Source: a virus. Taken from it: a stretch of DNA of 20,801 nucleotides. The notes under the pieces are model-generated. The model saw only the letters and a list, made by a program, of their open reading frames with translations. It did no database searches and was not told where the DNA came from. How positions within the stretch are numbered: position 1 is the first letter of the stretch; each line of letters opens with the position of its first letter. Location of the stretch: positions 1 to 20,801 of IMG/VR virus record IMGVR_UViG_3300020473_000157; one strand, given 5' to 3'. A program made the translations under genes and the position numbers. Shown here piece after piece: positions 2,994-17,932 of this stretch.

Positions 2994-3626
2994 TTATAAT
3001 GCACTCTTTGCTAATTTTGCAAAAGCTTTACCATATTGCTCAACAGTTATATTACCAGTACCAGGAAGTTGAAAGACATCTCCTCCTTCAATCACTTTAA
3101 AACTTCCTACATTTTCTTCAAGTTTACCTGGAGTGTTTATATCAATATCCGCATCAGCTGACATTGACATTTTACTATCTGCAGTCATCTTACAATTTGT
3201 TGCTTCTACATCAAAATTTGCATTTGCTCTTACATTAACATATCCAGTACCATCACCATCACCAGTTGAGATAAGATCAATAGACTGTGCTGTTATTCTT
3301 ATTCTTCCTTTAGGTGCATGAATATTAATATCACCATTTTCTGCGTACCATACACCTGCTACATCATTAACAGGTGCTTCCCCACAACTAATTTCAAAGA
3401 CAGAAGGAGTACTACAAAGAATAGCACCATCCAATGCTCCTCCTTGCTGAAGAGCTACATATTGAGCACGTTTATAAGGAGAAGGGAAAATACGACGAAG
3501 AGCAACTGCCATCTTCGCATTATTCTCCATTACATGACCATAATAGGTTCCACCCTCTGTGGTACAAAATTGGTTCTTTTTATAAGTCTTAGCTTCCCCT
3601 TTAATTTGTTGTTGTGTATTTGACAT
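2994..3626 (-). CDS. Beta-helix-like spike protein, possible separate gp5 C-terminal needle
   Basis: This is a 210-residue protein. Residues about 97-170 show alternating short hydrophobic beta strands (GDINIHAP, GRIRITAQSIDLIS, YVNVRANANFDVEA, KMSMSADADIDINTP). This is the pattern of the triple-stranded beta-helix that forms the T4 gp5 and VgrG needle. Residues 1-96 are a conserved-looking head and 170-210 a small helical tail. The gene overlaps the stop of the 2113-residue gp5-like gene by one base (TAATG, with GAGGT as SD), so the two are probably made together. I infer that OB-fold and needle, fused in T4 gp5, are on separate or additional polypeptides here. A general baseplate role is safe; the needle assignment is tentative. 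Confidence 0.65.
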   Translation of the reverse strand: MSNTQQQIKGEAKTYKKNQFCTTEGGTYYGHVMENNAKMAVALRRIFPSPYKRAQYVALQQGGALDGAILCSTPSVFEISCGEAPVNDVAGVWYAENGDINIHAPKGRIRITAQSIDLISTGDGDGTGYVNVRANANFDVEATNCKMTADSKMSMSADADIDINTPGKLEENVGSFKVIEGGDVFQLPGTGNITVEQYGKAFAKLAKSAL

Positions 3627-6600
3627 TATGTTACCTCAGTTTTTGCATTTGGTCCTACATTACCCACGCAATCAATTACCTGAGTAACTACCGTTCCTTC
3701 AGGAAACTCATTAAGATTTTCCCGATGACTCTTTAAAACAGGAATAAGAAAAGCATTGAAACCAGTTTTAGTATTTATATAGACCTCAGGAAGTTCTGTA
3801 AATCCAGCACCACACTTAGTTACTCTAACTCTTATAATACCACCATCACACTCTTCAATGACTGCTTCTGCACCATTAGAAGGTTCAATGACTACGGTAT
3901 CATCACAACAATTATAACCAAAACCAGGATTTGCTACAGTAATCTGATCTAAACATAAAATAACTCTATAAGTAGTACTTGAAGGACAGGTGGTAGGAAC
4001 AATAGGAACACATACACCATTCTCTTTTTGATATCCTGGAGGACAAGTATCCTCATTAGGTATACAATCACCGTTAGGGCCCTTATGGTAACCTGGAGGA
4101 CACTCATCATCAGGAGGAGGTATAGGTCTACATGTACCTCTATCAAAATAATATCCTTCAGGACATGGATCCTTCTCCTTCTCAGGGCAATCAGGAGCAG
4201 TTAATCTAACACTGAAATCGGCACACTTACCCCAATTTTCATCATCCAATTTTTCTTGCATACATCGATCTACTGCTATCCCTTGAGATTCGATAAAGTG
4301 TCTTATATCACAATCACTATACCCTAAAAGTTTCGCATTAAGATAATCGGGTTCGCAACCAAAAATTTCAGGTATTTCTGGGTCAATATTATCATCAAGA
4401 ATTTCATATGGAGCAATAGCATAATAAGTCTTAGTATAACTCTCAGTTTCTTCTATAGTATTTTGGAAAGGATCCAAAGAACTTCTAATAATCTCACCAG
4501 TACCAGTTATATTAGTAGGATAAGATTGACTTCTTATCTCAATTTTCTCTTGACCTATAACAGTTCCTTCTAAATTAACACTCTTAGTCTCAGTTCCACT
4601 TCTACCAGATTGTGTCCAAGTTACAGATCCTATCTGAATGGTTTCTACTGCCACTCCTGCAGTACTTACTCTATCATTCCATTCTAATCTGAGAGTTATA
4701 TCACCTGTTCCTTCAATTCGATTAGCACCATCAATAAATTTTGCATTTCCTCCAATAATAGTAAATCGAGCATTGCAATCATTACCATCACCATCCTTTA
4801 AACATAAACTATTACCAGCATTTTCAACTAAAATAGGATCATTCGCAGCATTCAACCCAGTATAAGTAATATCATGCTTTGATTCGACAATATCCCTAAA
4901 TTCAAAACTTATATTGGTCACAAGTTCAGCAGGAGGGGGAGCTTGCCCCTTTCTAAACACCCATCCTAATGCACCAGGATTAGTGTCAAGGCCCTCTTCT
5001 CCTCCTCGTTTCTGATTTATAATAGAAGCTTCTATTGTAAATGGAGTAGGTAGAATCTTACCCTCATCATCTTTGTTTAAAGATTCCTCTTTTATCTCAA
5101 TTTCAAAAAATGTAGATCTATTGTGAGATTTAAACACAGTCGTAGATCCTAAAAATTTACCATTAAAAGTAATACTTGCCTGATTGTCTGACTGAACTTC
5201 AAAATAATAATCTCCTACATCCTGCAGTAAAACTTCCCAAATTCCTATTTGAGGAATATTAACTAGTGTCTCCGTAGAAGATGGCCAAACTCCATAATTT
5301 TTTAAGAAAGGAGACCAACCTTGAGAATCACTAAGTACCCAATTCTCAGCAGGTATAATATCTGCTACCCTATACCATTCTTGTGGATCTACTGTTAGAG
5401 ATATTACTTTTTTCTCTTTATATTCACCTACTCTATAAATTAAATTTTCCGACCTTCTAACTAATTGAGGAATTTGAGAAAAATTATTTTGAACAAAAGA
5501 TCCTATATACTTTCCATCCTTATAAAACCACCACTGAGCAATTCCAGCTGGAAAATCAGGATCACTACCATCAATTCTTTCAATATAAGTTCCTTTAGCA
5601 TTACCTGATAAGAAAACAAGATCACGCTCTATCCCCCTCAGTCCACTTGGAGTCCATGTTTTAGGACCATTTAATCCATTAATGGTTATACTTTCAACAG
5701 CAACTCCTGCAACATTTGGATCGTCTTTCCAAACTAAAGCAAACTGCACATCAACATAATCACCCTGAACCACAATACCTCTACCATCAGGTGTAAATTT
5801 TGCAATTCCCCCATTCACCTCTTCAATTTCAAAATAAGCATTGGTGTCAAGACCATCACCGTCCCTTAAAAGAATTTTAGTTCTATTATTAGTTACCGTA
5901 AGACTAGTATTTGTAGAATTCAATCCTGTATAATCAATAGTAATCGGGTTTAATTCAGGTTCAACATATAATTCAGGTTCTAATTTTTGAGTATTTTCAT
6001 AATTAATCTCATCCCCTTCATTCTCTACATACTCAGAAAGAGGAAAATCTGACATATCTCTAGGTTTTATTGCCTCCCCTATTATCAAAGAGCCTGGAAT
6101 ATCACTTACCTCAAAATCTTCATTAATACAAATCTCCTCCTTTGCTGGAAGAGTGATGCAATCTCCAGGAAATAATTCAATAATTTCACCAGTAGTATAT
6201 GGAACATCCCAATCTCCATTACCACGATGCACAATAGTTTGACATCTCCCTGCCCATGTTCTTTCCATTCCACCTTTAGAACCATCAGGCCATGGTAGAT
6301 AACCATATCCAGTTCCTGATAATTCCACTCTAACTACCCCTATTCCTTCTTTCTTCACAATTGTACCAAGATTACAAACAGGTGTAATAATATCTCCTAC
6401 TTGATAATTCTTTCCACCATTACTTACTTGAACTCCAGTAATGTTACCAACATCACCCACATTAACAATATTGAAAGCTAAAGAAGTTCCATTACCTCCC
6501 ACAGTCAACATATTAGTTGCACCTGCACCATATCCCGAACCTCCTCTCAATAAAGTAATTGCTATAACTCTACCATCCTCTCCAATATCATTAACTCTTA

Positions 6601-9600
6601 TGGTTGCATTACGACATCCCATCTCCTCATCAACTTCATCTTCTCCATCTACAATATTAATCTTTGCTCCCATCTTAGGATGATTTTCGCAGTAATAATA
6701 TAAAGTATCAGGAGCATTATTATCCACATCAATTTGAACAAATGCATTAGGATCTCCAGGTAGACCTGCTTTAGTAACTCCAGTTGTATATTCTGTACCG
6801 CAATTTTCAAGAACTGCTTCAGGATCCTCTGCAAAGGGTTGAGTAGAATTTGCAAACGAAATTGTACCATCAAGATTTGTTACTTCCCATGCAAGAGCAG
6901 CTGGATTGTTATTCCAATTCCGTGATATCCTACCCATTTGACGGAGTTCTTCCCATGTCCTGCGAGTATTTTGAATGGTAGCTGTTAATATATGTTTCTT
7001 CCCACTTTCAAAAACTTCAAACTCAAAATACTTAGGAGTATTATGAGGACCACGAGAAAGATCTTTATAAGATACCGTTTCTTCAGTAAAAGTTCCACTT
7101 TCTATTTCAGTTAATTTAATAGTCTCAGTTTGTCTACCCGATCCACCCCTTTGAAACCATGTAGTACCTCCAATAGTAATACTCTCCAGAGCAACTCCCG
7201 CTATACCAGGATTATCCCCCCAATTCAATGTTAAAGTTACAGTTCCTGTTCCTTCTATGTCTATTTGAGTTGGATCAGTAATAAGTCCATCAGCACTTTC
7301 AGATTCATCAGGATTAGGAAGCGTTTTCACTACAAAAAAAGCATCCCCACTATCAATACTAAATGTAGCATTGGTATCATTTCCATGCCCGTCTTTTAAT
7401 TCAAGTTTTTTACCATTCTCTTTAATTACCTGACTTACTGGAATATTTGCCGCATTTAAATTACTAATACTCAAAGTTTGTTTTACAGGAGCAACCTCAT
7501 TAAATACTCTATTCGTTTTAGTACTAGTAGGTATAGGGTCCGTAGCACCTAGATAAATTCCATTCCAAGATACTGTTCCTAAATTATCTGCTTGAATTTG
7601 AACTCTATAAGTTCCTGGTTCAGGAATTATAATCTCCCAGTTTCCTGTATGAACTCCAGGTAAAACCTTATACTCTGGATAAACTCCATATGCCTGTAAA
7701 AAGGGTGACCATCCCGCCGAAGCTGTTAAAACCCAGTTATCAGAAGGCATACCCAGTCGAGACACCAACCAATCTACTGGGCCTGCATCAGTACTGGATC
7801 TATCACAATTATGAATTCCATCCGATTTTTCAGAAAACCTTAAAGGATGCCGATTAATTTCCTCATACTCACCAGTAGAAATTTCCCCAAAAGGATCTTC
7901 ACCTTTCATTAAAACTAATTCATCTATACCACCCTGAAGAATGAACCCATTAGAAGGACTAGATTGATCAAACCTATAACTCTTTCCTCTTTCTAAAGTA
8001 ACAACTCTTTGTTGACGATCATCTATAACATATCTATTACCGCTAGGATTTTTCTTAACGGACACATTAAAAGTAGTAATACCAACAGGTTCTTCAAGAT
8101 CAAATCCAATAATATGAAATTGCATATCCCCAACACTACCATCACCTTCAATCCTTCTATTAAGAATAATCCTATCACCCGTAACATCAATAATCTTAGT
8201 TCCTGCTGGAATAGATGGTGAATTGGAGAGTTGCATAATGCTTCTACCCACCAAATCTATATTATTTTGTATAGGAGCATCAGGCAATAAAGTAAAACCA
8301 CTTATATAATTCGTTCCTGAAACAATGGTTCCTGCGAAATCACTAGTAATTACCGTAGTATCAGTCTCTACAGGTCCAAGAATAGCTTTCCCTACTGCCC
8401 CTCTTCCTTTACCGCAAATATCTACAATACTTACATAAGGTGCTTGAGTATAACTTCCACTTTCCACGATATCCACATGTGCCACTTGTCCCGTCTCAAC
8501 AGAAACAACAGCATTTCCTTTTGCTCCAGACCCTGTTCCACCCCAGAAACTAACTTGAGGAACACCACATTCTATAGGACCAGTATCACATTGATCTAGA
8601 GTATTAGCCGCTGCTTCTTGAGGGTCAAATTTAAATTTATACTTACTAATATTTTTTGGAACTTTAGTAAGTTTTTGAAATTTTTCTCCAACTACTTTAG
8701 CCTTATTAAAAATATTACCCGTATTTAAAGTAATTTTTACGGGACTACCCCCATCTAAAAAATTCCATTCTTTTACAACAGGATCATCTTGAGAGGGACT
8801 GACTTCACAATTCAAAAGATCCATTATAGAACCTAAAACATCCCCAATAGAACCTAAAATATCAGTTGCTCCACCAAGAACATTAGAAATAGTTCCTATA
8901 ACACCATTAATTAATGCAGATAATTGACCAACAATTTGTCCAACAAAATTAGATACAAAATTTTCTATCAAACAACTAGCAGTATTAACAACTTTATTAA
9001 TAACTGAAAGCAAACCTTGACCAACAAGATTTGGCATCTCCGCTATTGAGAGATTAAAGGCACAAGAAAGAGCTTTAATTGCCTGATTTATTAATTTATT
9101 ATTAGCAAACTTACCTGATAACGGAAAATTAGCTGTCACCAAATTCATTGCCGTATTAAGTTTTCTAAGGAACTTTTTCTGAACCTTAGCCATAATAGTA
9201 TTAATATATCCACTTATTAATTTTACTTGCTTACTAAGTGCCTGAGAAATTGCTTCAACAGACCTCTCTGCATTATCAAGAGTTTCTAAACTTTGTCTCA
9301 AAGCACTATTACTTCCTATCAAATCCTTTTTTAATTTTTCAACATCTTTTATTGCATTTTCTATTGCAGAAGACATTCCTCCTACAGTATTCTTTGCACC
9401 ATCTAACACTGGAAACTGCCACTTTGCTTCATCTCTAGGAGTATTCTGAAGATAATCTGCATATGATCTCCATGAAACATTAAACTCTTCATTTCCTGGT
9501 ACTAATGCTCCATCCAGCCAATTAAAATCAGGTACAGGATATAAAGTATTTGATGGATCAAAACCACTTAAAGGAGTATAAGCTTGCTCTGCAGTTAATG

Positions 9601-9967
9601 GTAAATTTTTTACAGTATTGGGAGCAACTCTCTCGATAAAGTATTCATTTGATTGAAGATCTTGTGTTACATATACAAATGTACCACGAGGATATGTAAC
9701 TGTACCAATAGACTCTCCTCTTAATCCTGAGGTAGAATTTTTAGGATATGCCCAAGGCAATGCAGGTGAAGGTACATCTGCATTATGAATTCCAAATAAC
9801 CTTATTTTATATCTGATTAAATGAGTCTTTTGATCATCACTAAACTTTGTATCCTGTTCGGTTTTAACCGTGCTGATATCATCCGCAATCTGGGCCAGTT
9901 GCAATCTACTGTGACCCAGTTGCTCTTCTACTAATCTTCGTGAGTATCTTTGGATTTGTGATTCCAT
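3626..9967 (-). CDS. Giant multidomain baseplate hub/spike protein with N-terminal gp5-like OB-fold, 2113 residues
   Basis: It is likely the central spike platform. Residues 1-50 are helical. Residues about 48-120 match the gp5/VgrG OB-fold pattern (YKIRLFGIHNAD, LPWAYP, then TVTYPRGTFVYV). Residues 195-265 look coiled-coil, and 290-390 form a Gly-punctuated hydrophobic helical stretch. Beta modules follow: GSG-type repeats (464-535, 1118-1235, 2000-2080), a split cupredoxin-like fold (628-720 and 1055-1106), two beta-sandwich copies, three copies of a roughly 120-residue module, and a Cys-rich segment (1927-1988). No lysozyme domain with the T4 gp5 active site is visible, and no signal peptide. 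It follows the gp27-like hub gene, as expected if the two interact. The start ATG is 6 bases past the previous stop and has no clear SD. The structural role is secure; the exact position in the virion is inferred. Confidence 0.8.
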   Translation of the reverse strand: MESQIQRYSRRLVEEQLGHSRLQLAQIADDISTVKTEQDTKFSDDQKTHLIRYKIRLFGIHNADVPSPALPWAYPKNSTSGLRGESIGTVTYPRGTFVYVTQDLQSNEYFIERVAPNTVKNLPLTAEQAYTPLSGFDPSNTLYPVPDFNWLDGALVPGNEEFNVSWRSYADYLQNTPRDEAKWQFPVLDGAKNTVGGMSSAIENAIKDVEKLKKDLIGSNSALRQSLETLDNAERSVEAISQALSKQVKLISGYINTIMAKVQKKFLRKLNTAMNLVTANFPLSGKFANNKLINQAIKALSCAFNLSIAEMPNLVGQGLLSVINKVVNTASCLIENFVSNFVGQIVGQLSALINGVIGTISNVLGGATDILGSIGDVLGSIMDLLNCEVSPSQDDPVVKEWNFLDGGSPVKITLNTGNIFNKAKVVGEKFQKLTKVPKNISKYKFKFDPQEAAANTLDQCDTGPIECGVPQVSFWGGTGSGAKGNAVVSVETGQVAHVDIVESGSYTQAPYVSIVDICGKGRGAVGKAILGPVETDTTVITSDFAGTIVSGTNYISGFTLLPDAPIQNNIDLVGRSIMQLSNSPSIPAGTKIIDVTGDRIILNRRIEGDGSVGDMQFHIIGFDLEEPVGITTFNVSVKKNPSGNRYVIDDRQQRVVTLERGKSYRFDQSSPSNGFILQGGIDELVLMKGEDPFGEISTGEYEEINRHPLRFSEKSDGIHNCDRSSTDAGPVDWLVSRLGMPSDNWVLTASAGWSPFLQAYGVYPEYKVLPGVHTGNWEIIIPEPGTYRVQIQADNLGTVSWNGIYLGATDPIPTSTKTNRVFNEVAPVKQTLSISNLNAANIPVSQVIKENGKKLELKDGHGNDTNATFSIDSGDAFFVVKTLPNPDESESADGLITDPTQIDIEGTGTVTLTLNWGDNPGIAGVALESITIGGTTWFQRGGSGRQTETIKLTEIESGTFTEETVSYKDLSRGPHNTPKYFEFEVFESGKKHILTATIQNTRRTWEELRQMGRISRNWNNNPAALAWEVTNLDGTISFANSTQPFAEDPEAVLENCGTEYTTGVTKAGLPGDPNAFVQIDVDNNAPDTLYYYCENHPKMGAKINIVDGEDEVDEEMGCRNATIRVNDIGEDGRVIAITLLRGGSGYGAGATNMLTVGGNGTSLAFNIVNVGDVGNITGVQVSNGGKNYQVGDIITPVCNLGTIVKKEGIGVVRVELSGTGYGYLPWPDGSKGGMERTWAGRCQTIVHRGNGDWDVPYTTGEIIELFPGDCITLPAKEEICINEDFEVSDIPGSLIIGEAIKPRDMSDFPLSEYVENEGDEINYENTQKLEPELYVEPELNPITIDYTGLNSTNTSLTVTNNRTKILLRDGDGLDTNAYFEIEEVNGGIAKFTPDGRGIVVQGDYVDVQFALVWKDDPNVAGVAVESITINGLNGPKTWTPSGLRGIERDLVFLSGNAKGTYIERIDGSDPDFPAGIAQWWFYKDGKYIGSFVQNNFSQIPQLVRRSENLIYRVGEYKEKKVISLTVDPQEWYRVADIIPAENWVLSDSQGWSPFLKNYGVWPSSTETLVNIPQIGIWEVLLQDVGDYYFEVQSDNQASITFNGKFLGSTTVFKSHNRSTFFEIEIKEESLNKDDEGKILPTPFTIEASIINQKRGGEEGLDTNPGALGWVFRKGQAPPPAELVTNISFEFRDIVESKHDITYTGLNAANDPILVENAGNSLCLKDGDGNDCNARFTIIGGNAKFIDGANRIEGTGDITLRLEWNDRVSTAGVAVETIQIGSVTWTQSGRSGTETKSVNLEGTVIGQEKIEIRSQSYPTNITGTGEIIRSSLDPFQNTIEETESYTKTYYAIAPYEILDDNIDPEIPEIFGCEPDYLNAKLLGYSDCDIRHFIESQGIAVDRCMQEKLDDENWGKCADFSVRLTAPDCPEKEKDPCPEGYYFDRGTCRPIPPPDDECPPGYHKGPNGDCIPNEDTCPPGYQKENGVCVPIVPTTCPSSTTYRVILCLDQITVANPGFGYNCCDDTVVIEPSNGAEAVIEECDGGIIRVRVTKCGAGFTELPEVYINTKTGFNAFLIPVLKSHRENLNEFPEGTVVTQVIDCVGNVGPNAKTEVT
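4004..4189 (-). repeat. Cys-rich CPxGY repeats near the C-terminus of the giant protein
   Basis: Residues about 1927-1988 contain three tandem units of C-P-[EP]-G-Y, 4-7 residues, C-x-P (CPEGYYFDRGTCRP, CPPGYHKGPNGDCIP, CPPGYQKENGVCVP) linked by Pro/Asp/Glu-rich spacers. This resembles small disulfide or metal-bound knots. Disulfides would be unusual for a protein folded in bacterial cytoplasm. Confidence 0.75.
4532..4879 (-). repeat. Beta module repeat 3 of 3 in the giant protein
   Basis: Residues about 1697-1812. It has YTGLNAANDPILV, the KDGDGNDCNARF loop, IEGTGDITLRLEWND, AGVAVETIQIG and WTQSGRSGTETK. This is the shortest copy and the closest to repeat 1. Confidence 0.75.
4946..5347 (-). 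repeat. Beta-sandwich module, copy 2 (uninterrupted)
   Basis: Residues 1541-1674 run from ENWVLSDSQGWSPFLKNYGV through FNGKFLGST and FFEIEI to NPGALGWVFRKG in one piece. This matches both halves of copy 1 and shows where copy 1 is interrupted. Confidence 0.65.
5567..5950 (-). repeat. Beta module repeat 2 of 3 in the giant protein
   Basis: Residues about 1340-1467. It has YTGLNSTNTSLTV, the RDGDGLDTNAYF loop, VQFALVWKDDPNVAGVAVES and a closing TWTPSGLRG, aligning with repeats 1 and 3 along their length. Confidence 0.75.
6875..7741 (-). repeat. Beta-sandwich module, copy 1, itself interrupted by a repeat module
   Basis: Residues 743-1031 open with NWVLTASAGWSPFLQAYGVYP and close with NNNPAALAWEV. 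Between WNGIYLGATD and YFEFEVFESGKKHILTATI lie about 155 residues that contain repeat module 1. The intact copy is at residues 1541-1674. The pattern (xWxPFLxxYGVYP, TYRVQIQADNxGxVSWNG) recalls PA14-like or carbohydrate-binding sandwiches, but this is only a resemblance. Confidence 0.65.
7064..7492 (-). repeat. Beta module repeat 1 of 3 in the giant protein
   Basis: Residues about 826-968. Shared landmarks are an introductory LNAANIPV, a KDGHGNDTNATF loop resembling an Asp/Asn-rich cation site, an IEGTGTVTLTLNW strand, AGVALESITIGG, and a closing W-x-x-x-G-x-S-G turn. It lies inside beta-sandwich copy 1. Confidence 0.75.
8798..9085 (-). other. Hydrophobic, Gly-punctuated helical region of the giant protein
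   Basis: This encodes residues about 295-390. It is a long run of apolar residues with regular Gly, Asn and Ser breaks (for example VGQIVGQLSALINGVIGTIS) and almost no charge. It could be a buried helical bundle or trimeric coiled stalk, or a segment that enters a membrane. The sequence alone does not decide between these. Confidence 0.5.
9608..9826 (-). other. gp5/VgrG-like OB-fold domain in the giant protein
   Basis: This encodes residues about 48-120. The order of motifs follows T4 gp5: a KIRLFGIH strand (T4 has VRVVGLHPP), a loop to LPWAYP (T4 has LPWMSV), a Gly/Ser-rich stretch, then PRGTFVYV (T4 has VEGTRVYG), and later a GFDPSNTLYP (T4 has GFSDPTGQYP). In T4 this domain sits on the gp27 trimer. 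I compared the sequences from memory, without a computed alignment. Confidence 0.65.
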
Positions 9968-11645: not shown

Positions 11646-13586
11646 TTATACTTCTATTGGCTGTATATATGTAGTAGTATTATCTACAACCATCATACCC
11701 CCTTGAGCATAAGAAGGATGAGTATCCAATCCTTCTACTTTACTTTGAGTATTATTGGAAATAATATCTTTAGAATTAACTTTTATTATGCCATATTTGT
11801 CTAATTTTTCTTCTTTTGATAAGTTTATAAATTCACTATACTCATCAGTAGAAACTTCTTGATTATTAATATATGCTTTTCCTGTGTCCATATCAAATCT
11901 ATTAGTAAGGGTTCTCTCCTCTTTCATTTCCTTATCTTCACCATCTTCTTTTTTAGGTTCCTTCTCTTTGAAAATAGCATCATAAATCGCACCAGCTAAC
12001 ATATCACCACCAGCACCACCTATAAAAGCACCAATGGCAGTTCCAACAAATGGGACAGGAATTAAAGTTCCTAACATTCCACCAAGCCACGCACCTACAC
12101 CAGCACCAATTGCCATAAATGCAGATTTTCCTAAAGGTTCTTTAAATACAAAATAATTTAAAGCAAAATCAATTAATGCACCAACAAAAGGAATTTTCTT
12201 TACAATGGGACTAATAATTTTCTTAGCAGACTTAAGAGTACCTGAAACTGCTTTTAATGTGGACTTCCCTGTTGTCTTTGCTGCAGTGCTTAATGTTTTG
12301 GTTGTTGATTTTAGAGCAGGAGTTAATTTTTTTGCCGTAGTAGATAAATTTTTGGTTGTTGTCTTTGCTGCCGTAGATAAATTTTTTGCTGTTGTTTTTG
12401 CTACATTTTTTGCCTTTGAAGCAACATCGGTTACCCCTTCACCAACATTTTTCAGAGTCTGGCCAGGTTTAAAGTTTTTAAAGTTTTTAAAAACTCTTGA
12501 TTGTAAATTAGCAACGTTTTGTGCCTGATTTGGAAAGAGTCGATCTACTCCCATGTCAGCCAACATTCCAATACCAAAACTTCTAAGATTTTTAAGGTTC
12601 TTAAGGTTTTTAAAATTTAATAGGTTTTTACCAAAATTCTTAAACCTAGCAAATCTTCTTAGTTTTCCAAACTTTTTTACTCTCTTTAATTTGTCTGCTC
12701 TAAGTTTTTTAATATTTTTGGCCCTTGATATTTTATCACCACGTTGAGGATCAAAAAATCTTTTGTTTAAGTTTCTTCTTCTTTTTACTTGATCACTAAA
12801 ACTTCTCTTGGGTTGCTTAATTTTAGGTTTTCCTTTAAATAAACCCACTCTTGCTCCAATTAATGCAGCAATCAATGCACCATTAAGTACCTGAGTAAAT
12901 AACTTTCCAAACCTTTCAAATAATTCTTTACCACCTTCTCCACCAATGGCCTCCATTAATTTTTCTAATTTTTCTACACCAGCATATGATAAGTCAATAA
13001 ATCCAACTACAAATCCCATCGTTGCCTTAAAAAGACCACCTATAAAATTAACAATAGGTTTCAGCCAACTAAAAATTTTCCTTAATTGTGGCATCAATTC
13101 AAGGAGTTTATTAACTACAAGTCCAAACACTAACCAAGAAAGGAAATTACCAATACCCAATTTAAGATTAGGCATTTTCCCTTTAGATTCTTTTGGTTTT
13201 ACTTTTGGTTTCTCCAGTTCTTCTTCTCTTTTTTCTCTCTTCTCGGTCTGTCTTGCTTTTCTTTCCTCCTCTCTTTCTTCTTTTTTAGCCGTATAACTAT
13301 CCTTTAATATATCTCTTACTTGTATTACTTGCTTTCTAATAATTACTATATCCGACTCCCCTGAAGTATCACTCACTGGATCAAAATCTTTTATATCCCC
13401 AACCAAATCCGTAGTAGGTCTAACTGCTAATGCTCCACCTTTTTTTTGTTCATCATCCATCCCCATTATCTTTTTAACAGACATTCTTCTTTTATTTGTT
13501 TTCTTTTTTCTATTCAATAATTTATCCTTAGCAATTTTCTTTGCTTTTCCTTTTAATAATGTTTTTCCTAATGCTGCTAACATCAT
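11646..13586 (-). CDS. Second tape-measure-like tail protein, 646 residues
   Basis: Residues 1-45 are very basic. Residues 85-130 form a charged coiled coil rich in E, K and R (KREKREEELE), followed by a hydrophobic segment 140-250. A Lys/Arg-rich region with FKN/LKN repeats covers 255-335, and an 11-residue Lys/Thr repeat (AAKTTTKNLST type) covers 385-450. Residues 465-540 are Gly-rich and hydrophobic, resembling a membrane hairpin. The end YAQGGMMVVDNTTTYIQPIEV is typical of tape-measure C-termini. The SD AGGAGG lies 8 nt before the first ATG. The N-terminal layout mirrors that of the 705-residue protein just upstream, suggesting an old duplication or a jointly working pair inside the tube. 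It has no clear T4 counterpart. Confidence 0.7.
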   Translation of the reverse strand: MMLAALGKTLLKGKAKKIAKDKLLNRKKKTNKRRMSVKKIMGMDDEQKKGGALAVRPTTDLVGDIKDFDPVSDTSGESDIVIIRKQVIQVRDILKDSYTAKKEEREEERKARQTEKREKREEELEKPKVKPKESKGKMPNLKLGIGNFLSWLVFGLVVNKLLELMPQLRKIFSWLKPIVNFIGGLFKATMGFVVGFIDLSYAGVEKLEKLMEAIGGEGGKELFERFGKLFTQVLNGALIAALIGARVGLFKGKPKIKQPKRSFSDQVKRRRNLNKRFFDPQRGDKISRAKNIKKLRADKLKRVKKFGKLRRFARFKNFGKNLLNFKNLKNLKNLRSFGIGMLADMGVDRLFPNQAQNVANLQSRVFKNFKNFKPGQTLKNVGEGVTDVASKAKNVAKTTAKNLSTAAKTTTKNLSTTAKKLTPALKSTTKTLSTAAKTTGKSTLKAVSGTLKSAKKIISPIVKKIPFVGALIDFALNYFVFKEPLGKSAFMAIGAGVGAWLGGMLGTLIPVPFVGTAIGAFIGGAGGDMLAGAIYDAIFKEKEPKKEDGEDKEMKEERTLTNRFDMDTGKAYINNQEVSTDEYSEFINLSKEEKLDKYGIIKVNSKDIISNNTQSKVEGLDTHPSYAQGGMMVVDNTTTYIQPIEV

Positions 13587-13590
13587 CCTA

Positions 13591-15708
13591 TTATCCTCCT
13601 ATCAAATCCTGAATACCTAATGACGCTATCACCATAGATCTTTGAGAAGATACTATAGGAATTCTAAACTCAGGAATATCATTTTTAGTCATCTCCATTT
13701 TCTGATCTTGTTGTTGTTTAGGTATAGTAGGTAAAGTAATTGTTCTATTCGTAGATTGTACAATTGGAGTTCCTACGGGTTCTTTCATCACATCTCCTAC
13801 TACTCCTCCATTTTCCAAATATTGAACTACTCCACCTTGATTATATTCTTGAGTAATTGTTGGGACATTAGTTCCTCCACCAGCTGCATTCATAGAAGCC
13901 AAGGTATTGACTCCAAACTTCTGAACTGCACCCTTACTCATCACAAACTCTCCTGCAGTCAATCTTGCAGGAACTTTATCTACTCCACCAGGTCCAGATA
14001 CAAAACCACCTTGTTTATAATTTTTAATTTTAGTAAGATTATTATAAGTCTCAACTAATCCACCACCCTTAAAGTTTTGATAATTATTAACTAATCCACC
14101 ACCCTTAAAGTTTTGATTAAAAGAACTATAACCTTTTACACTGTTATCAGAATTTATTAAATTATTATCCTGTAGAAATTGCATATTAACAGCACGTTCT
14201 TTAGCATTAGAAACTGCCTGTGCATCACTATTCTGCAGTATGGGATAAAGAACTTCAGCATCGATACCAGATGTTCCATTAACAATACTTTCTATGGTTG
14301 TTCCTTGAGGTAATTGAGAAAGAATTTGCTCTTGATGCTCATAAAGATCTTCAAGTTTAATAGAACCTTGAGTTTTTTCTCTAGTCTTAGTTCTTTCTAT
14401 TTCACCTCCCTTTACCACCTTTTCCGTCTTAAATTTCTTTAAACTATAAACCAATTCCTTATCAACCATTCCACCTTCATTAAAGTTTTGAACTAATCCA
14501 CCTTCATTATACCTTTGAACAAAATTCTGAGCTGATTTTTGATCATTATAATGTTGAACTAAACCACCTTCATTAAAATTAAATCTTCCCATACTATTAC
14601 CACCTAAAGGATCATTCATCCCTGTTTGAAGCATATTAGTATTGGATCTTATATTAGTATCTCCTTCTGTCATTTTATTAACATTACTAGTCGTTACTGA
14701 CTGACTTAATACTTCTGCATCACCAGCACCCATCCCTTCATCTTGAAGTTGTGTTGATGATTGATTCTGTGCTTCTGCTAGATTCTCTCCTTCTTTATCA
14801 CCACCTAAATTCTTCGCAAGGCTCGTTACACCCCACACAGCAAGACCCGTCCCTACTAGTGCTAATGCTGCATAAGGATTGGCAGCTATTGCAATTACCA
14901 ACTTAGGAATAATAGCAGTTAGAAGACTCACTACTCCTGCCAATAATCCACCCAAAGGAGTAAGCCATAACGCTGCTGCAGTTGCTAATGCAGGCCACCA
15001 ATCCTTAAAGAACTTACCAATTCTTTGTGCTTTTTTCTGATTCTTTGGATCCTTAAACCAATCAAGAGTGTCATTTAAAAGCACTCCCAGTAATGTAAAC
15101 TTAAGAAACTTAATTAAAGCATCCCAAATACTCTGGAAAGGAGATAACAATGCCTTAGCAGAACTTCCAATTAGACCTAATGATTTTTTAAGGCCTCCTC
15201 CTTCTAACTTACCTTCTCTTTTCTCTCTTTTATCTTTTGCTTCTTGTTTCCGAGCATCTCTTGCTTCCTTTCTATCACCCTTAAAATCTAAACGCAATAC
15301 CTTTAATATATCATCAAGAATATCTCTTATTCCTTTAAGACCTTCTGTTTCTTGCTTCTGTTCCTCTCCTTCAGGTAAAGATAGGTCAGGAGTCGGTGCT
15401 GGAGGTTTATATGGAACAATAGAACTTGTACCCGTAGCATCTGCTTTTACAGGTTCTTCTTTTTTATTTAAAAAATTTTCTTTAAATGATTTAACATCTA
15501 TTTTTTTTCTTCTTAACTTAAGTTCTTTCTTTGCCTCATCTTGAAGAAGCATCACATAATCTTTATTATATTCACCACCTAGACTTGGATCCTCTGCAAA
15601 ATCCATGACAGCATTACTTAATGCCTTATGATATGGAGTATCGTCATCAAGATATCCATACTCTACAAGGATGTCTAATGGTTCAGTAAGTTTTATAGAA
15701 CTAGGCAT
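13591..15708 (-). CDS. Tail tape measure protein (gp29 counterpart), 705 residues
   Basis: It would act as the ruler and scaffold inside the tail tube and reach the hub. Residues 125-170 form a charged coiled coil (KEARDARKQEAKDKREKREG). Residues 190-300 hold hydrophobic segments. The C-terminal half carries eight GG[LMFV]V motifs, each after an N-[FY]-type stretch, and the tape-measure signature GGFVSGPGGVDKVPARL followed by GEFVMSKGAVQKFG at 567-598. The start overlaps the gp51-like gene by 8 bases with no strong SD, so it is probably coupled. Its length is within the range of T4 gp29 (590 residues), and it is encoded after gp26/gp51 as in T4-like tail clusters. The tape measure call is firm; equivalence with gp29 is inferred. 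Confidence 0.8.
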   Translation of the reverse strand: MPSSIKLTEPLDILVEYGYLDDDTPYHKALSNAVMDFAEDPSLGGEYNKDYVMLLQDEAKKELKLRRKKIDVKSFKENFLNKKEEPVKADATGTSSIVPYKPPAPTPDLSLPEGEEQKQETEGLKGIRDILDDILKVLRLDFKGDRKEARDARKQEAKDKREKREGKLEGGGLKKSLGLIGSSAKALLSPFQSIWDALIKFLKFTLLGVLLNDTLDWFKDPKNQKKAQRIGKFFKDWWPALATAAALWLTPLGGLLAGVVSLLTAIIPKLVIAIAANPYAALALVGTGLAVWGVTSLAKNLGGDKEGENLAEAQNQSSTQLQDEGMGAGDAEVLSQSVTTSNVNKMTEGDTNIRSNTNMLQTGMNDPLGGNSMGRFNFNEGGLVQHYNDQKSAQNFVQRYNEGGLVQNFNEGGMVDKELVYSLKKFKTEKVVKGGEIERTKTREKTQGSIKLEDLYEHQEQILSQLPQGTTIESIVNGTSGIDAEVLYPILQNSDAQAVSNAKERAVNMQFLQDNNLINSDNSVKGYSSFNQNFKGGGLVNNYQNFKGGGLVETYNNLTKIKNYKQGGFVSGPGGVDKVPARLTAGEFVMSKGAVQKFGVNTLASMNAAGGGTNVPTITQEYNQGGVVQYLENGGVVGDVMKEPVGTPIVQSTNRTITLPTIPKQQQDQKMEMTKNDIPEFRIPIVSSQRSMVIASLGIQDLIGG
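13595..13600 (-). promoter_or_regulatory. Strong ribosome binding site for the 646-residue gene
   Basis: AGGAGG lies 8 nt before the ATG at 13586. It is made from the last Ile-Gly-Gly codons of the tape measure gene, so it decides the start and couples the two genes. Confidence 0.75.
14053..14116. repeat. Perfect 28-bp direct repeat with 36-bp period
   Basis: Copies are at 14053-14080 and 14089-14116. They encode a 12-residue tandem duplication in the tape measure protein (NFKGGGLVNNYQ then NFKGGGLVETYN). The near-perfect DNA identity suggests a recent duplication or gene conversion. Confidence 0.9.
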
Positions 15709-15877
15709 TCGCTTGTTGCTGTTTGAGTTTTTCTTCCTCTAGGTGTGCTCTCAATAATTCAACATACACGTCCCTTTCCCAAGGAATCATGTTTTCAATC
15801 TCAGTTAATGAATATTTATGATACTGCATGAGAGAAAAATTAAGTCTAAAATAATTTTCCAGACTCATGTGAATCAT
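15701..15877 (-). CDS. gp51-like baseplate hub assembly protein, 58 residues
   Basis: The ORF reads MIHMSLENYFRLNF, then MQYHKYSLTEIENMIPWERDVYVELL, and ends in a Glu/Lys/Gln-rich helix. The 'YSLxExExMIPWERxxYxxLL' core resembles, from memory, the small gp51-like hub assembly proteins of T4-type marine phages, and more distantly the downstream part of tail assembly chaperones. It begins 2 bases after the gp26 stop, in the -1 frame, and its end overlaps the tape measure start by 8 bases. A good independent SD is lacking: TAGGT is too close to the first ATG and weak for Met4. It may therefore be expressed mainly as a gp26-gp51 frameshift fusion of about 299 residues. In T4, genes 26 and 51 are also adjacent. 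Confidence 0.75.
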   Translation of the reverse strand: MIHMSLENYFRLNFSLMQYHKYSLTEIENMIPWERDVYVELLRAHLEEEKLKQQQANA

Positions 15878-15879
15878 AC

Positions 15880-16599
15880 CTAGCCGAAAAAACTGGAGAG
15901 TCCCTCCAATACTATAGTACTTTCAACCTTAGTCTTTGGATTCTTAACCTTGACTGTATGAGAAAGTTTAGGCATAGTCTCAAAGAAAGTTTCAATTTCT
16001 TTAAACTGAGAAGAATTCATCTGTTCTAAGAATGAGTTAATCTCCTTCTTAGTACAATCCGCAGCAGTCCAAACTTCTTCTGCATTATAAATTTTATCTA
16101 CACATGAAGTAATCAAATCAAAAGACTGATCCATAGTTGCATCATTATTAAAATCAAAATTATTTTTAATAAATTCTGCAAGAGATGGATACTTCATTTC
16201 CATTACTAATGAATCATCTAATTTAATTTTATTAGTATGATTCTCAGTCTTCAATATTCCAATCTCATCAATAGGAATAGTCACGGGAACATAAGTTTCA
16301 TTATCATCAGGACAAAGAAGTTTAACTTCAAGTTCCTCTCCGACAGACTTACCTCGGATATTTAAAAATAGATACTCAATATCAAATGTAGGAAGTGTAT
16401 CTACTTTAATTCCTTTTGTCTGAATACACGATTTTATAACATTCTTAATGGCCGTTGTTATCTCTTTAACATCTTCACCTTCCAAAGCTAAAACCAATAA
16501 TTTCTCTTCTTTAACTAAAAAAGGTCTATATTGAATTGTTTGTCCAGTCGAAGGTAATTCCAACTCATATGTCGGGGTCGCAATCTTGGGTAAAGGCAT
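15880..16599 (-). CDS. 26: Baseplate hub subunit/assembly protein gp26
   Basis: This is a 239-residue protein beginning MPLPKIATPTYELELPSTGQ and then YRPFLVKEEKLLVLAL, the hallmark of the T4 gp26-type baseplate family (Pfam T4_baseplate). T4 gp26 is 208 residues. The middle contains VKLLCPDDNETYVP-type strands and the C-terminal half is helical, ending LEGLSSFFG. In T4 it acts with gp51 in building the central hub. AGGA lies upstream of the ATG in a 51-nt gap after the previous gene, where I see no clear promoter. The last codons contain a slippery heptamer that could extend it into the gp51-like frame, as in tail assembly chaperones of other phages. Confidence 0.85.
   Translation of the reverse strand: MPLPKIATPTYELELPSTGQTIQYRPFLVKEEKLLVLALEGEDVKEITTAIKNVIKSCIQTKGIKVDTLPTFDIEYLFLNIRGKSVGEELEVKLLCPDDNETYVPVTIPIDEIGILKTENHTNKIKLDDSLVMEMKYPSLAEFIKNNFDFNNDATMDQSFDLITSCVDKIYNAEEVWTAADCTKKEINSFLEQMNSSQFKEIETFFETMPKLSHTVKVKNPKTKVESTIVLEGLSSFFG
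15886..15892 (-). promoter_or_regulatory. Candidate programmed -1 ribosomal frameshift site (T TTT TTC)
   Basis: In the gp26 reading frame the bases read AGT TTT TTC GGC TAG, which contains the canonical X XXY YYZ heptamer T TTT TTC four bases before the stop. A -1 slip continues as CGG CTA GGT ATG and is open through the whole gp51-like gene. GGAGGG at 15907..15902 lies 9 nt upstream, comparable to the stimulatory SD of E. coli dnaX. A downstream imperfect hairpin (AGTCT/AGACT arms, 15865..15843) starts about 20 nt after the heptamer, farther than usual. Confidence 0.6.
15894..15908 (-). promoter_or_regulatory. SD-like GGAGGG inside a small hairpin upstream of the slippery site
   Basis: On the minus strand TGGAG (15908..15904) pairs with CTCCA (15898..15894) around a 5-nt loop GGACT, ending one base before the T6 run. 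The same bases contain the SD-like GGAGGG, so the element could pair with rRNA or fold on itself. Confidence 0.5.
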
Positions 16600-16650: not shown

Positions 16651-17442
16651 TTAATTACCAGTCTCATCGAAATTTATACCCATCTCCTGCAATCTGTTTG
16701 CAGCAAATGCAGATTCTGATGCTCCTTCATTAGTTGTAGCCATTACTCCAGTTTCATTAAATCCTTGTCCACCTATAAACTGCGAACTATCACTCTCTCC
16801 TGTAACTTTATAAGCTATAGGTGTAGGTACAGTTGCTCCCGTAATATATCTACTAAAATTAAAATTAACTGTACACTTTAATGTCTGTGCTCCGTCATAA
16901 GAAACTGGCATTGAATCAATACTAACAGGATATGCATTTAAAAATAGATATGTGAGTTGCTGTTCATCATAATTTTCATTTACTTTTTGAGGTTTATTAA
17001 AATCTCTTTCAAATTTAGTAATCCAGATATTTGTTTGATAAGATTTTGGAAAATTAACTCGATAAAAATAATTAAAATCTGCTTTATTTTGTTCATTTAC
17101 AATATATCCAATCCAAGTTTCAAATAACTTTATCTGCCTATAATACCTATCAACATAAAATGTAAATGAAGCAGTAGTATCATATTGTCTTCGATGTACA
17201 TGTCTCTCTGTTATCCCACTATGATCATTCTGCAACTCAACCGTAGCTAAAGAAGTTCCAGGTAATGCTGCTTCCAAACAAGACAACGTATAGTCCTCAT
17301 CTTTTTCTACATCGGCAATTAAATTCTGAACCGAAACAGGAGGATTAAACCAACACTCATAATGGGTAGTAAGAGCAGTATTTAAAATAGATTTTTTTAA
17401 ATCTGATACTCCAACCTTTCTGGGGCGTATTATCTGTGCCAT
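16651..17442 (-). CDS. Tail-tube-fold baseplate protein, likely tube initiator (gp54-like), 263 residues
   Basis: The protein begins MAQIIRPRKVGVSDLKKS. Tube-like features are an LPGTSLATVEL stretch (60-70), RRQYDTTASFTFYVDRYY (84-101), an FETWIGYIV helix (107-115), FLNAYPVSIDSMPVSYD (167-183) and LKCTVNFNFSRYI (188-200). In tail tube, initiator and cap proteins, the 'NAxPxSixxxpvSYdxxxxLxxtVxFxyxRY' close is characteristic. The C-terminal 60 residues are polar and flexible. I chose the ATG at 17442 rather than one at 17586, because the longer form would run antisense through gp4 and through the intergenic late box. Only a weak AGG precedes this start. gp54 is the best T4 match by order and fold; tail tube gp19-like is an alternative. 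Confidence 0.7.
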   Translation of the reverse strand: MAQIIRPRKVGVSDLKKSILNTALTTHYECWFNPPVSVQNLIADVEKDEDYTLSCLEAALPGTSLATVELQNDHSGITERHVHRRQYDTTASFTFYVDRYYRQIKLFETWIGYIVNEQNKADFNYFYRVNFPKSYQTNIWITKFERDFNKPQKVNENYDEQQLTYLFLNAYPVSIDSMPVSYDGAQTLKCTVNFNFSRYITGATVPTPIAYKVTGESDSSQFIGGQGFNETGVMATTNEGASESAFAANRLQEMGINFDETGN

Positions 17443-17448
17443 TAGGCC

Positions 17449-17456
17449 TATAAATA
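17449..17456 (+). promoter_or_regulatory. T4-type late promoter box upstream of gp4
   Basis: TATAAATA lies 23 bases before the gp4 ATG, in the 37-bp divergent gap (17443-17479). The position fits transcription starting near 17462 with a leader of about 18 nt. The box overlaps the 8-bp palindrome TAGGCCTA. No exact box faces the leftward operon. Confidence 0.6.
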
Positions 17457-17479
17457 TTACTACTGATATAGTATGTATA

Positions 17480-17932
17480 ATGGGAGAAAGTAAAAAGAGT
17501 TTCTTCAGACCCACTTTTCCCAAAAAATACAAGGGAAATCCGAATAATATTATATGTAGGAGTACGTGGGAAACGAAATTCTGCAACTATTGTGATCTAA
17601 ATGAAAATATTCTTGAGTGGGGTAGTGAAGAATTCTATATTAAATATGTCTCTCCTGTTGATAATCGGTTTCATCGTTATTATCCAGACTTTATTATTAA
17701 AGTAAAAGAAAGTACTGGGCAAATTAAAACTTATGTGATTGAAGTAAAACCCAAGAAACAAACCCAACCTCCTAAAAAGAAAAAGAAAGTGACTCAATCA
17801 TATCTCTATGAATGCAAAACCTATGCAGTTAATACTGCTAAATGGGCTGCAGCAAGAGAGTTTTGTAATGATAGAAAAATTGAATTTAAAATCATTACCG
17901 AACAAGAACTAGGAATATATCATGGTAGATAA
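17480..17932 (+). CDS. 4: Head completion protein gp4 (gp50), nuclease-fold
   Basis: It is 150 residues, the same as T4 gp4. It begins MGESKKSFFRPTFPKKYKGN, with RSTWE at 27-31, EW at 46-47, YYPDF at 67-71 and VIEVKPK at 86-92. The PD...ExK arrangement (D70, E88, K90) matches PD-(D/E)XK nuclease folds and TnsA-like proteins, to which the gp4 family is related. In T4 it is needed to finish filled heads so that tails can join. A late box precedes the gene, but no SD is visible, and the ATG is the first in frame. The next gene overlaps its 3' end by 11 bases. It faces away from the baseplate operon. Confidence 0.85.
   Translation: MGESKKSFFRPTFPKKYKGNPNNIICRSTWETKFCNYCDLNENILEWGSEEFYIKYVSPVDNRFHRYYPDFIIKVKESTGQIKTYVIEVKPKKQTQPPKKKKKVTQSYLYECKTYAVNTAKWAAAREFCNDRKIEFKIITEQELGIYHGR

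What the first reader, a model, noticed from the sequence alone, without database searches (positions are those of the whole stretch)
15701..16599. Probable programmed -1 frameshift joining gp26 and a gp51-like gene
gp26 ends AGT TTT TTC GGC TAG, with the canonical heptamer T TTT TTC in the correct frame. The -1 frame is open across the stop and enters the 58-codon gp51-like gene through only three linker codons (Arg-Leu-Gly), predicting a fusion of about 299 residues. The gp51-like gene has no good SD of its own. Tail assembly chaperones of lambda (G/GT) and P2 (E/E', T TTT TTG) use the same layout just before the tape measure gene, and here the tape measure gene follows immediately. This would make gp26/gp51 the T4-type equivalent of G/GT. 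I am not aware of this being described for T4-like phages.
Basis: partly seen in the sequence, partly recalled or inferred. Interest (0 to 1): 0.85.

Follow-up and report, generated by a model that had tools for sequence, protein, structure and literature searches.

The report
Known tail-chaperone ribosomal frameshift, marine phage
A T4-like marine phage very probably makes a short and a long form of a tail-building helper protein by having ribosomes slip back one base at a T-rich site; the signal is kept in every one of 150 distinct close to moderately distant relatives checked, but this arrangement was already reported for T4-like phages in 2022.

Summary
On the minus strand gp26 (16599-15880) ends AGT TTT TTC GGC TAG. 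The in-frame heptamer T_TTT_TTC (15892-15886) lets the -1 frame run 61 codons through the gp51-like ORF, giving a 299-residue fusion. It is not chance: 182 of 182 relatives with a gp26-type junction (150 distinct), from cyanophages to Pelagibacter, Delftia, Stenotrophomonas, Pseudomonas, Aeromonas and Vibrio phages, keep an in-frame T_TTT_TT(C/T) 0-1 codon before the stop and an open -1 frame into gp51. In 21 of the 150, gp51 has no ATG/GTG/TTG in its first 13 codons, so it can hardly be a separate gene. A predicted gp26 structure has the HK97 tail assembly chaperone fold in its N-terminal ~90 residues. T4 has no such junction: gene 51 is the long form in one ORF, gene 26 the short form. Its claim that this is undescribed is wrong: Vladimirov, Gautam and Davidson (Virology 2022) identified these chaperones, and citing papers describe both the poly-T frameshift signals and the split-gene solution. 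A possible addition, as a lead only, is an SD-like AGGG 9 nt upstream.

The parts
15880..16599 (-). gp26 = short tail assembly chaperone form (TAC-N), 239 aa; PF12322 T4_baseplate, phrog_150
   Evidence: AlphaFold model pLDDT 86 with HK97 TAC-like N-terminal domain
15886..15892 (-). slippery heptamer T_TTT_TTC, in the gp26 frame; P-site TTT, A-site TTC
   Evidence: T_TTT_TT(C/T) kept in 182/182 relatives
15880..15882 (-). gp26 stop codon TAG, one codon (GGC) after the heptamer
15902..15907 (-). SD-like GGAGGG, last G 9 nt before the heptamer; possible dnaX-like stimulator (lead only)
   Evidence: codon bias at these two codons:
15701..15885 (-). -1 frame extension: linker R-L-G plus gp51-like domain (TAC-C), 61 codons and stop; the annotated-style ORF alone is 15701-15877
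   Evidence: phrog_634 7.9e-27; also C-terminal columns 242-279 of phrog_150
13591..15708 (-). 705-aa ORF directly downstream, overlapping gp51 by 8 nt; tape-measure-like
   Evidence: weak phrog matches to tape measure proteins, best 3.6e-07
16651..17586 (-). gp54-like tail tube initiator upstream (mechanical ORF from TTG; family match starts at residue 57, so the real start is probably further in)
   Evidence: PF23849 1e-15; phrog_45 5.9e-32, hit by T4 gp54 at 1.2e-65

Best explanation
gp26 and the gp51-like ORF are one gene expressed in two forms. Most ribosomes stop at TAG and make the short chaperone (TAC-N, gp26, 239 aa). A minority slip back one base on T_TTT_TTC: tRNA-Phe in both P and A sites re-pairs with TTT TTT. 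These continue through R-L-G into the 58-codon domain and make the long form (TAC-NC, 299 aa). By analogy with lambda G/GT, the two forms coat the tape measure protein and recruit tube subunits, then leave before the tail is finished. Shown here: site, frame, conservation, fold of the N-terminal domain, gene order, and T4's single-ORF long form. Inferred: that slippage happens, its rate, and the binding of the tape measure.
For: Heptamer, frame and stop as described. 182/182 relatives (150 distinct) keep in-frame T_TTT_TT(C/T) 0-1 codon before the stop with an open -1 frame of 56-67 residues where the contig reaches that far. The residue before Phe-Phe varies (S, D, N, A, G) yet its codon ends in T in 150/150. 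P-site Phe is TTT in 150/150 and A-site Phe is TTC in about 97%, against about 71% TTT elsewhere in gp26. 31 of 150 lack an ATG and 21 lack any ATG/GTG/TTG in the first 13 codons after the slip; in Aeromonas CC2 the first start codon is 31 codons in. gp26 residues 1-96 align to HK97 tail assembly chaperone 2ob9 (Z 7.9, rmsd 4.0, 84 aligned), YqbN 3klu (7.5) and 3fgx (7.9); the next rows are 5ir0 from a PICI-like element (4.7) and human p32 (3.9). An HMM of the -1 extension hits the C-terminus of all five Straboviridae gp51 proteins tested (E 5e-9 to 1.5e-5) and none of the five gp26. T4 gp51 matches phrog_150 to column 280, T4 gp26 only to 235. T4 gp51 is required for assembly but absent from the particle (PMC3004832).
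Against: No peptide, ribosome profiling or reporter data were available. The 705-aa ORF is only weakly supported as the tape measure. Downstream RNA structure in this window is no stronger than in shuffled sequence (z -1.1). The fold match is to the N-terminal ~90 residues only, just under Z 8. The loci are related, so counts are not independent events. In this window gp51 has an ATG (15877) 2 nt after the stop, so some separate initiation cannot be excluded.
Confidence: 0.93

Rival explanations
1. gp51 is a separate small gene, translated by re-initiation (translational coupling) from the ATG just after the gp26 stop; the T run is only a Phe-Phe codon pair.
For: In this window an ATG lies 2 nt after TAG. 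Some relatives have a start codon overlapping the stop, e.g. TAATG/TGATG in Vibrio D486, VH7D and Delftia W-14. GenBank records annotate two separate CDSs.
Against: 21 of 150 distinct relatives have no ATG/GTG/TTG in the first 13 codons after the slip. Heptamer codons are fixed far beyond codon usage. T4 gp51 carries the gp26-like domain and the extension in one chain.
Confidence: 0.04
2. RNA polymerase slippage on the T6 run, rather than ribosomal slippage, produces the -1 frame mRNA.
For: The run is six T.
Against: Six T is short for bacterial transcriptional slippage (own knowledge). The run does not lengthen across relatives; the A-site codon ends in C in nearly all of them, fitting the XXXYYYZ rule of tandem tRNA slippage.
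Confidence: 0.02

Closest known systems
Tail assembly chaperones of T4-like phages (Vladimirov, Gautam & Davidson, Virology 2022, 566:9-15)
   Same: Same genes (26 and 51). Citing papers state poly-T -1 frameshift signals in TAC-N genes of T4-like phages (PMC12846349) and separate short/long genes in some T4-like phages (PMC10885494).
   Different: Paper not held, so which phages and cis-elements it covers could not be checked. The junction here is one more member.
Lambda G/GT and P2 E/E' chaperone frameshifts (Xu, Hendrix & Duda 2004)
   Same: -1 slip at the end of the short form, extension just upstream of the tape measure; P2's T_TTT_TTG heptamer is nearly identical (own knowledge).
   Different: Sequence unrelated; gp26 carries ~140 extra residues after the TAC-N-like domain; myovirus of the T4 type.
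Tail assembly chaperone frameshift of Vandenendeviridae/Andersonviridae (PMC12846349)
   Same: -1 frame open in all genomes, poly-T motif at the end of TAC-N.
   Different: GTTTTT motif, different phage families.
T4 gp26 and gp51
   Same: Homologous proteins (PF12322 8.8e-64 and 3.9e-52); gp51 has the same C-terminal extension.
   Different: Two separate genes on opposite strands, no frameshift.

Membership tests
Frameshifted tail assembly chaperone pair (TAC-N/TAC-NC, G/GT type) | In-frame slippery heptamer near the end of the short ORF and an open -1 frame into the extension | tested here: met
   conserved in 182/182 relatives
Frameshifted tail assembly chaperone pair (TAC-N/TAC-NC, G/GT type) | Extension not independently initiated | tested here: inconclusive
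   21 of 150 relatives lack any common start codon in the first 13 codons, so met for those; in this window an ATG follows the stop, so for the window the support is indirect
Frameshifted tail assembly chaperone pair (TAC-N/TAC-NC, G/GT type) | Position between tube-type gene and tape measure gene | tested here: met
   gp54-like upstream; 705-aa ORF with weak tape-measure matches downstream
Frameshifted tail assembly chaperone pair (TAC-N/TAC-NC, G/GT type) | TAC-N fold (HK97 gp13, YqbN) | tested here: met
   2ob9 Z 7.9, 3fgx 7.9, 3klu 7.5 over residues 1-96; next row 5ir0 Z 4.7, then 3.9; Foldseek E-values alone not significant
Frameshifted tail assembly chaperone pair (TAC-N/TAC-NC, G/GT type) | Both products made in a fixed ratio, long form a minority | not testable with these tools
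   needs proteomics or reporter
Frameshifted tail assembly chaperone pair (TAC-N/TAC-NC, G/GT type) | Binds tape measure protein and is absent from the virion | not testable with these tools
   for T4 gp51, absent from particle per PMC3004832
T4 gp26/gp51 family (PF12322, phrog_150, phrog_634) | Profile match over the curated cut-off / full-length | tested here: met
   PF12322 246.9 bits vs 24.5 cut-off; phrog_150 2.2e-78, phrog_634 7.9e-27

The most novel reading that the evidence does not exclude
The frameshift in this clade is helped by an internal SD-like AGGG about 9 nt upstream of the slip site (as in E. coli dnaX), which may not have been noted for tail chaperone frameshifts of T4-like phages. 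Glu GAG at this column is 77%, the highest of the well-conserved Glu columns of gp26; where Glu is GAA, Gly is GGG in 18 of 31 against about 5% elsewhere.
Probability: 0.3. Interest if true: 0.35.

Novelty: already known. Interest (0 to 1): 0.25.

Why it matters
It explains why T4's gp26 and gp51 are essential for hub/tail assembly although gp51 is absent from the virion, and shows that public cyanophage records mis-annotate one two-form gene as two genes, often with gp51 missing or truncated. The general point has been published, so the value here is confirmation on many environmental genomes and a possible stimulator element.

Tried and rejected
Downstream RNA structure: window fold z -1.1, no support; the hairpin over GGAGGGACUCUCC is not kept in relatives by inspection. 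SD-like covariation (GAA with GGG): Fisher p 4.9e-8 over loci but not significant in phylogenetically independent pairs (median p 0.5), so a lead only. PDB sequence search with gp26: only chance CDK2 matches. Scans of viral contigs with the Vibrio D486 gp26 found nothing and with the Delftia W-14 gp26 found only W-14 itself. First structure job failed and was rerun. A model of the fusion was not attempted; the gp51 domain alone was not folded.

Full report
OBSERVATION. On the minus strand gp26 (16599-15880, 239 aa) ends AGT TTT TTC GGC TAG. The heptamer T_TTT_TTC (15892-15886) is in the gp26 frame, one codon before the stop. The -1 frame continues as R-L-G and then the 58-codon ORF 15877-15701, giving 238 + 61 = 299 residues. 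Scanning both strands for XXXYYYZ heptamers within four codons of the stop of any ORF of 60+ codons gives two sites; only this one opens into a long -1 frame (61 codons against 6).

IDENTITY. gp26 matches PF12322 (2.4e-73) and phrog_150 (2.2e-78). The small ORF matches phrog_634 (7.9e-27, 'baseplate hub assembly catalyst') and, tellingly, the C-terminal columns 242-279 of the gp26 family phrog_150. The gene upstream is gp54-like: T4 gp54 hits the same family, phrog_45. Downstream, overlapping by 8 nt, is a 705-aa ORF with weak matches to tape measure proteins (best 3.6e-07). The window is a 20.8 kb virus record.

CONSERVATION. In 80 close relatives from IMG/VR the heptamer and a stop one codon later were kept in all 80. 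Adding S-PM2-, HTVC008M- and W-14-type loci and annotated phages, 182 of 182 junctions (150 distinct) have T_TTT_TT(C/T) in frame 0 or 1 codon before the stop; the -1 frame is open for 56-67 residues except in two loci that end at a contig edge. The Ackermannviridae loci are not in this count (see below). Hosts of isolates range over Synechococcus, Prochlorococcus, Pelagibacter, Ochrobactrum, Delftia, Stenotrophomonas, Pseudomonas, Aeromonas and Vibrio. Vibrio VH7D, read separately, has GAT TTT TTC GTA TAA. The residue before Phe-Phe varies (Ser, Asp, Asn, Ala, Gly) but its codon ends in T in 150/150; the P-site Phe is TTT in 150/150 and the A-site Phe TTC in about 97%, against a 71% TTT usage elsewhere in gp26. 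The loci are related, so these are not independent counts, but selection on the nucleotides is plain.

IS GP51 A SEPARATE GENE? In 31 of 150 distinct relatives there is no ATG, and in 21 no ATG/GTG/TTG, in the first 13 codons after the slip site; in Aeromonas CC2 the first is at codon 31. Annotators have accordingly begun gp51 inside the conserved domain (HTVC008M, P-TIM40) or left it out (CC2, many cyanophages). In this window an ATG does follow the stop by 2 nt, without an SD at proper distance, so a minor contribution from re-initiation cannot be excluded.

FOLD. An AlphaFold model of gp26 on 57 relatives (pLDDT 86, pTM 0.80) was compared with the PDB. The top rows by VIA-align are 3fgx (Z 7.9), HK97 tail assembly chaperone 2ob9 (7.9) and YqbN 3klu (7.5), all over residues 1-96; then 5ir0 from a PICI-like element (4.7) and p32 (3.9). 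Foldseek E-values alone were not significant. So the N-terminal ~90 residues have the TAC-N fold, with about 140 further residues after it.

T4. In T4, genes 26 and 51 lie apart on opposite strands, so no frameshift is possible. T4 gp51 matches the gp26 family over its whole length plus the extension (phrog_150 to column 280), T4 gp26 only to column 235; both match PF12322. An HMM built here from the -1 extensions hits the C-terminus of gp51 of T4, KMB19, 44RR, ZZ1 and EC-F2 (E 5e-9 to 1.5e-5) and none of their gp26. Thus gp26 = short form, gp51 = long form. Aeromonas CC2, in the same family Straboviridae, still has the frameshift. Ackermannviridae (Marshall, D532, SD25, 1.244) have a -1 extension but no classical heptamer; how they make the long form is open.

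MECHANISM. Most likely tandem slippage of tRNA-Phe from TTT-TTC to TTT-TTT gives a minority long form; by analogy with lambda G/GT the pair coats the tape measure and is lost from the finished tail. Slippage itself, its rate and tape-measure binding are inferred. T4 gp51 is known to be required but absent from the particle (PMC3004832). A possible stimulator is the SD-like GGAGGG at 15907-15902, 9 nt upstream: GAG is used for 77% of Glu at that column (14-64% at other well-conserved Glu columns), and GGG is used for Gly in 18 of 31 cases where Glu is GAA against about 5% elsewhere. The phylogenetically independent test is not significant, so this is a lead only. No downstream structure was found.

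KNOWN OR NEW. [quoted passage not shown] The paper is not held, but papers that cite it state that poly-T sequences are known -1 signals in TAC-N genes of T4-like phages (PMC12846349) and that some T4-like phages instead carry a short gene and a longer fusion gene (PMC10885494). From memory, its abstract says frameshifting is conserved in several T4-like groups while T4 uses separate genes 26 and 51. The finding is therefore correct, and already known in kind; this window is another member. No held paper was found that treats the cyanophage junction specifically.

Noticed in passing
L088 3640-3700; L183-L199; L089 3560-3620; L205 2085-2125; L207 2037-2077: Ackermannviridae gp26 relatives keep a -1 frame gp51-like extension but lack a classical heptamer (GAA ATT TTC ATT TAA, CTT TTC AAG TAA, GTT TTT CGC TAA, CTT TTT CGC TAA); in Marshall there is no start codon early in the extension.
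   Followed up: partly
L084 3703-3890; L087 3721-3896; L208 2212-2408; L206 3121-3285; L212 2984-3150: Public annotations truncate gp51 (start inside the conserved domain) or omit it (Aeromonas CC2, Vibrio VH7D), because it is treated as a separate gene; none of the records read joins the two CDSs.
   Followed up: partly
L211 2001-2755: Acinetobacter phage ZZ1 gp51 matches T4 gp51 in two pieces and is annotated as a 191-aa ORF noted as overlapping another CDS of the same product, suggesting a frame break or sequencing error in its N-terminal part.
   Followed up: no
window 3626-9967 (-): A 2113-aa ORF between the gp27-like and gp5-like region, with several repeated blocks (e.g. DITYTGLNAANDPI...LKDGDGNDCNA), probably a large baseplate or fibre protein.
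   Followed up: no
window 11646-13586 (-): A second long lysine-rich, glycine-zipper ORF (646 aa) follows the 705-aa tape-measure-like ORF; either could be the tape measure, or the function may be split.
   Followed up: no
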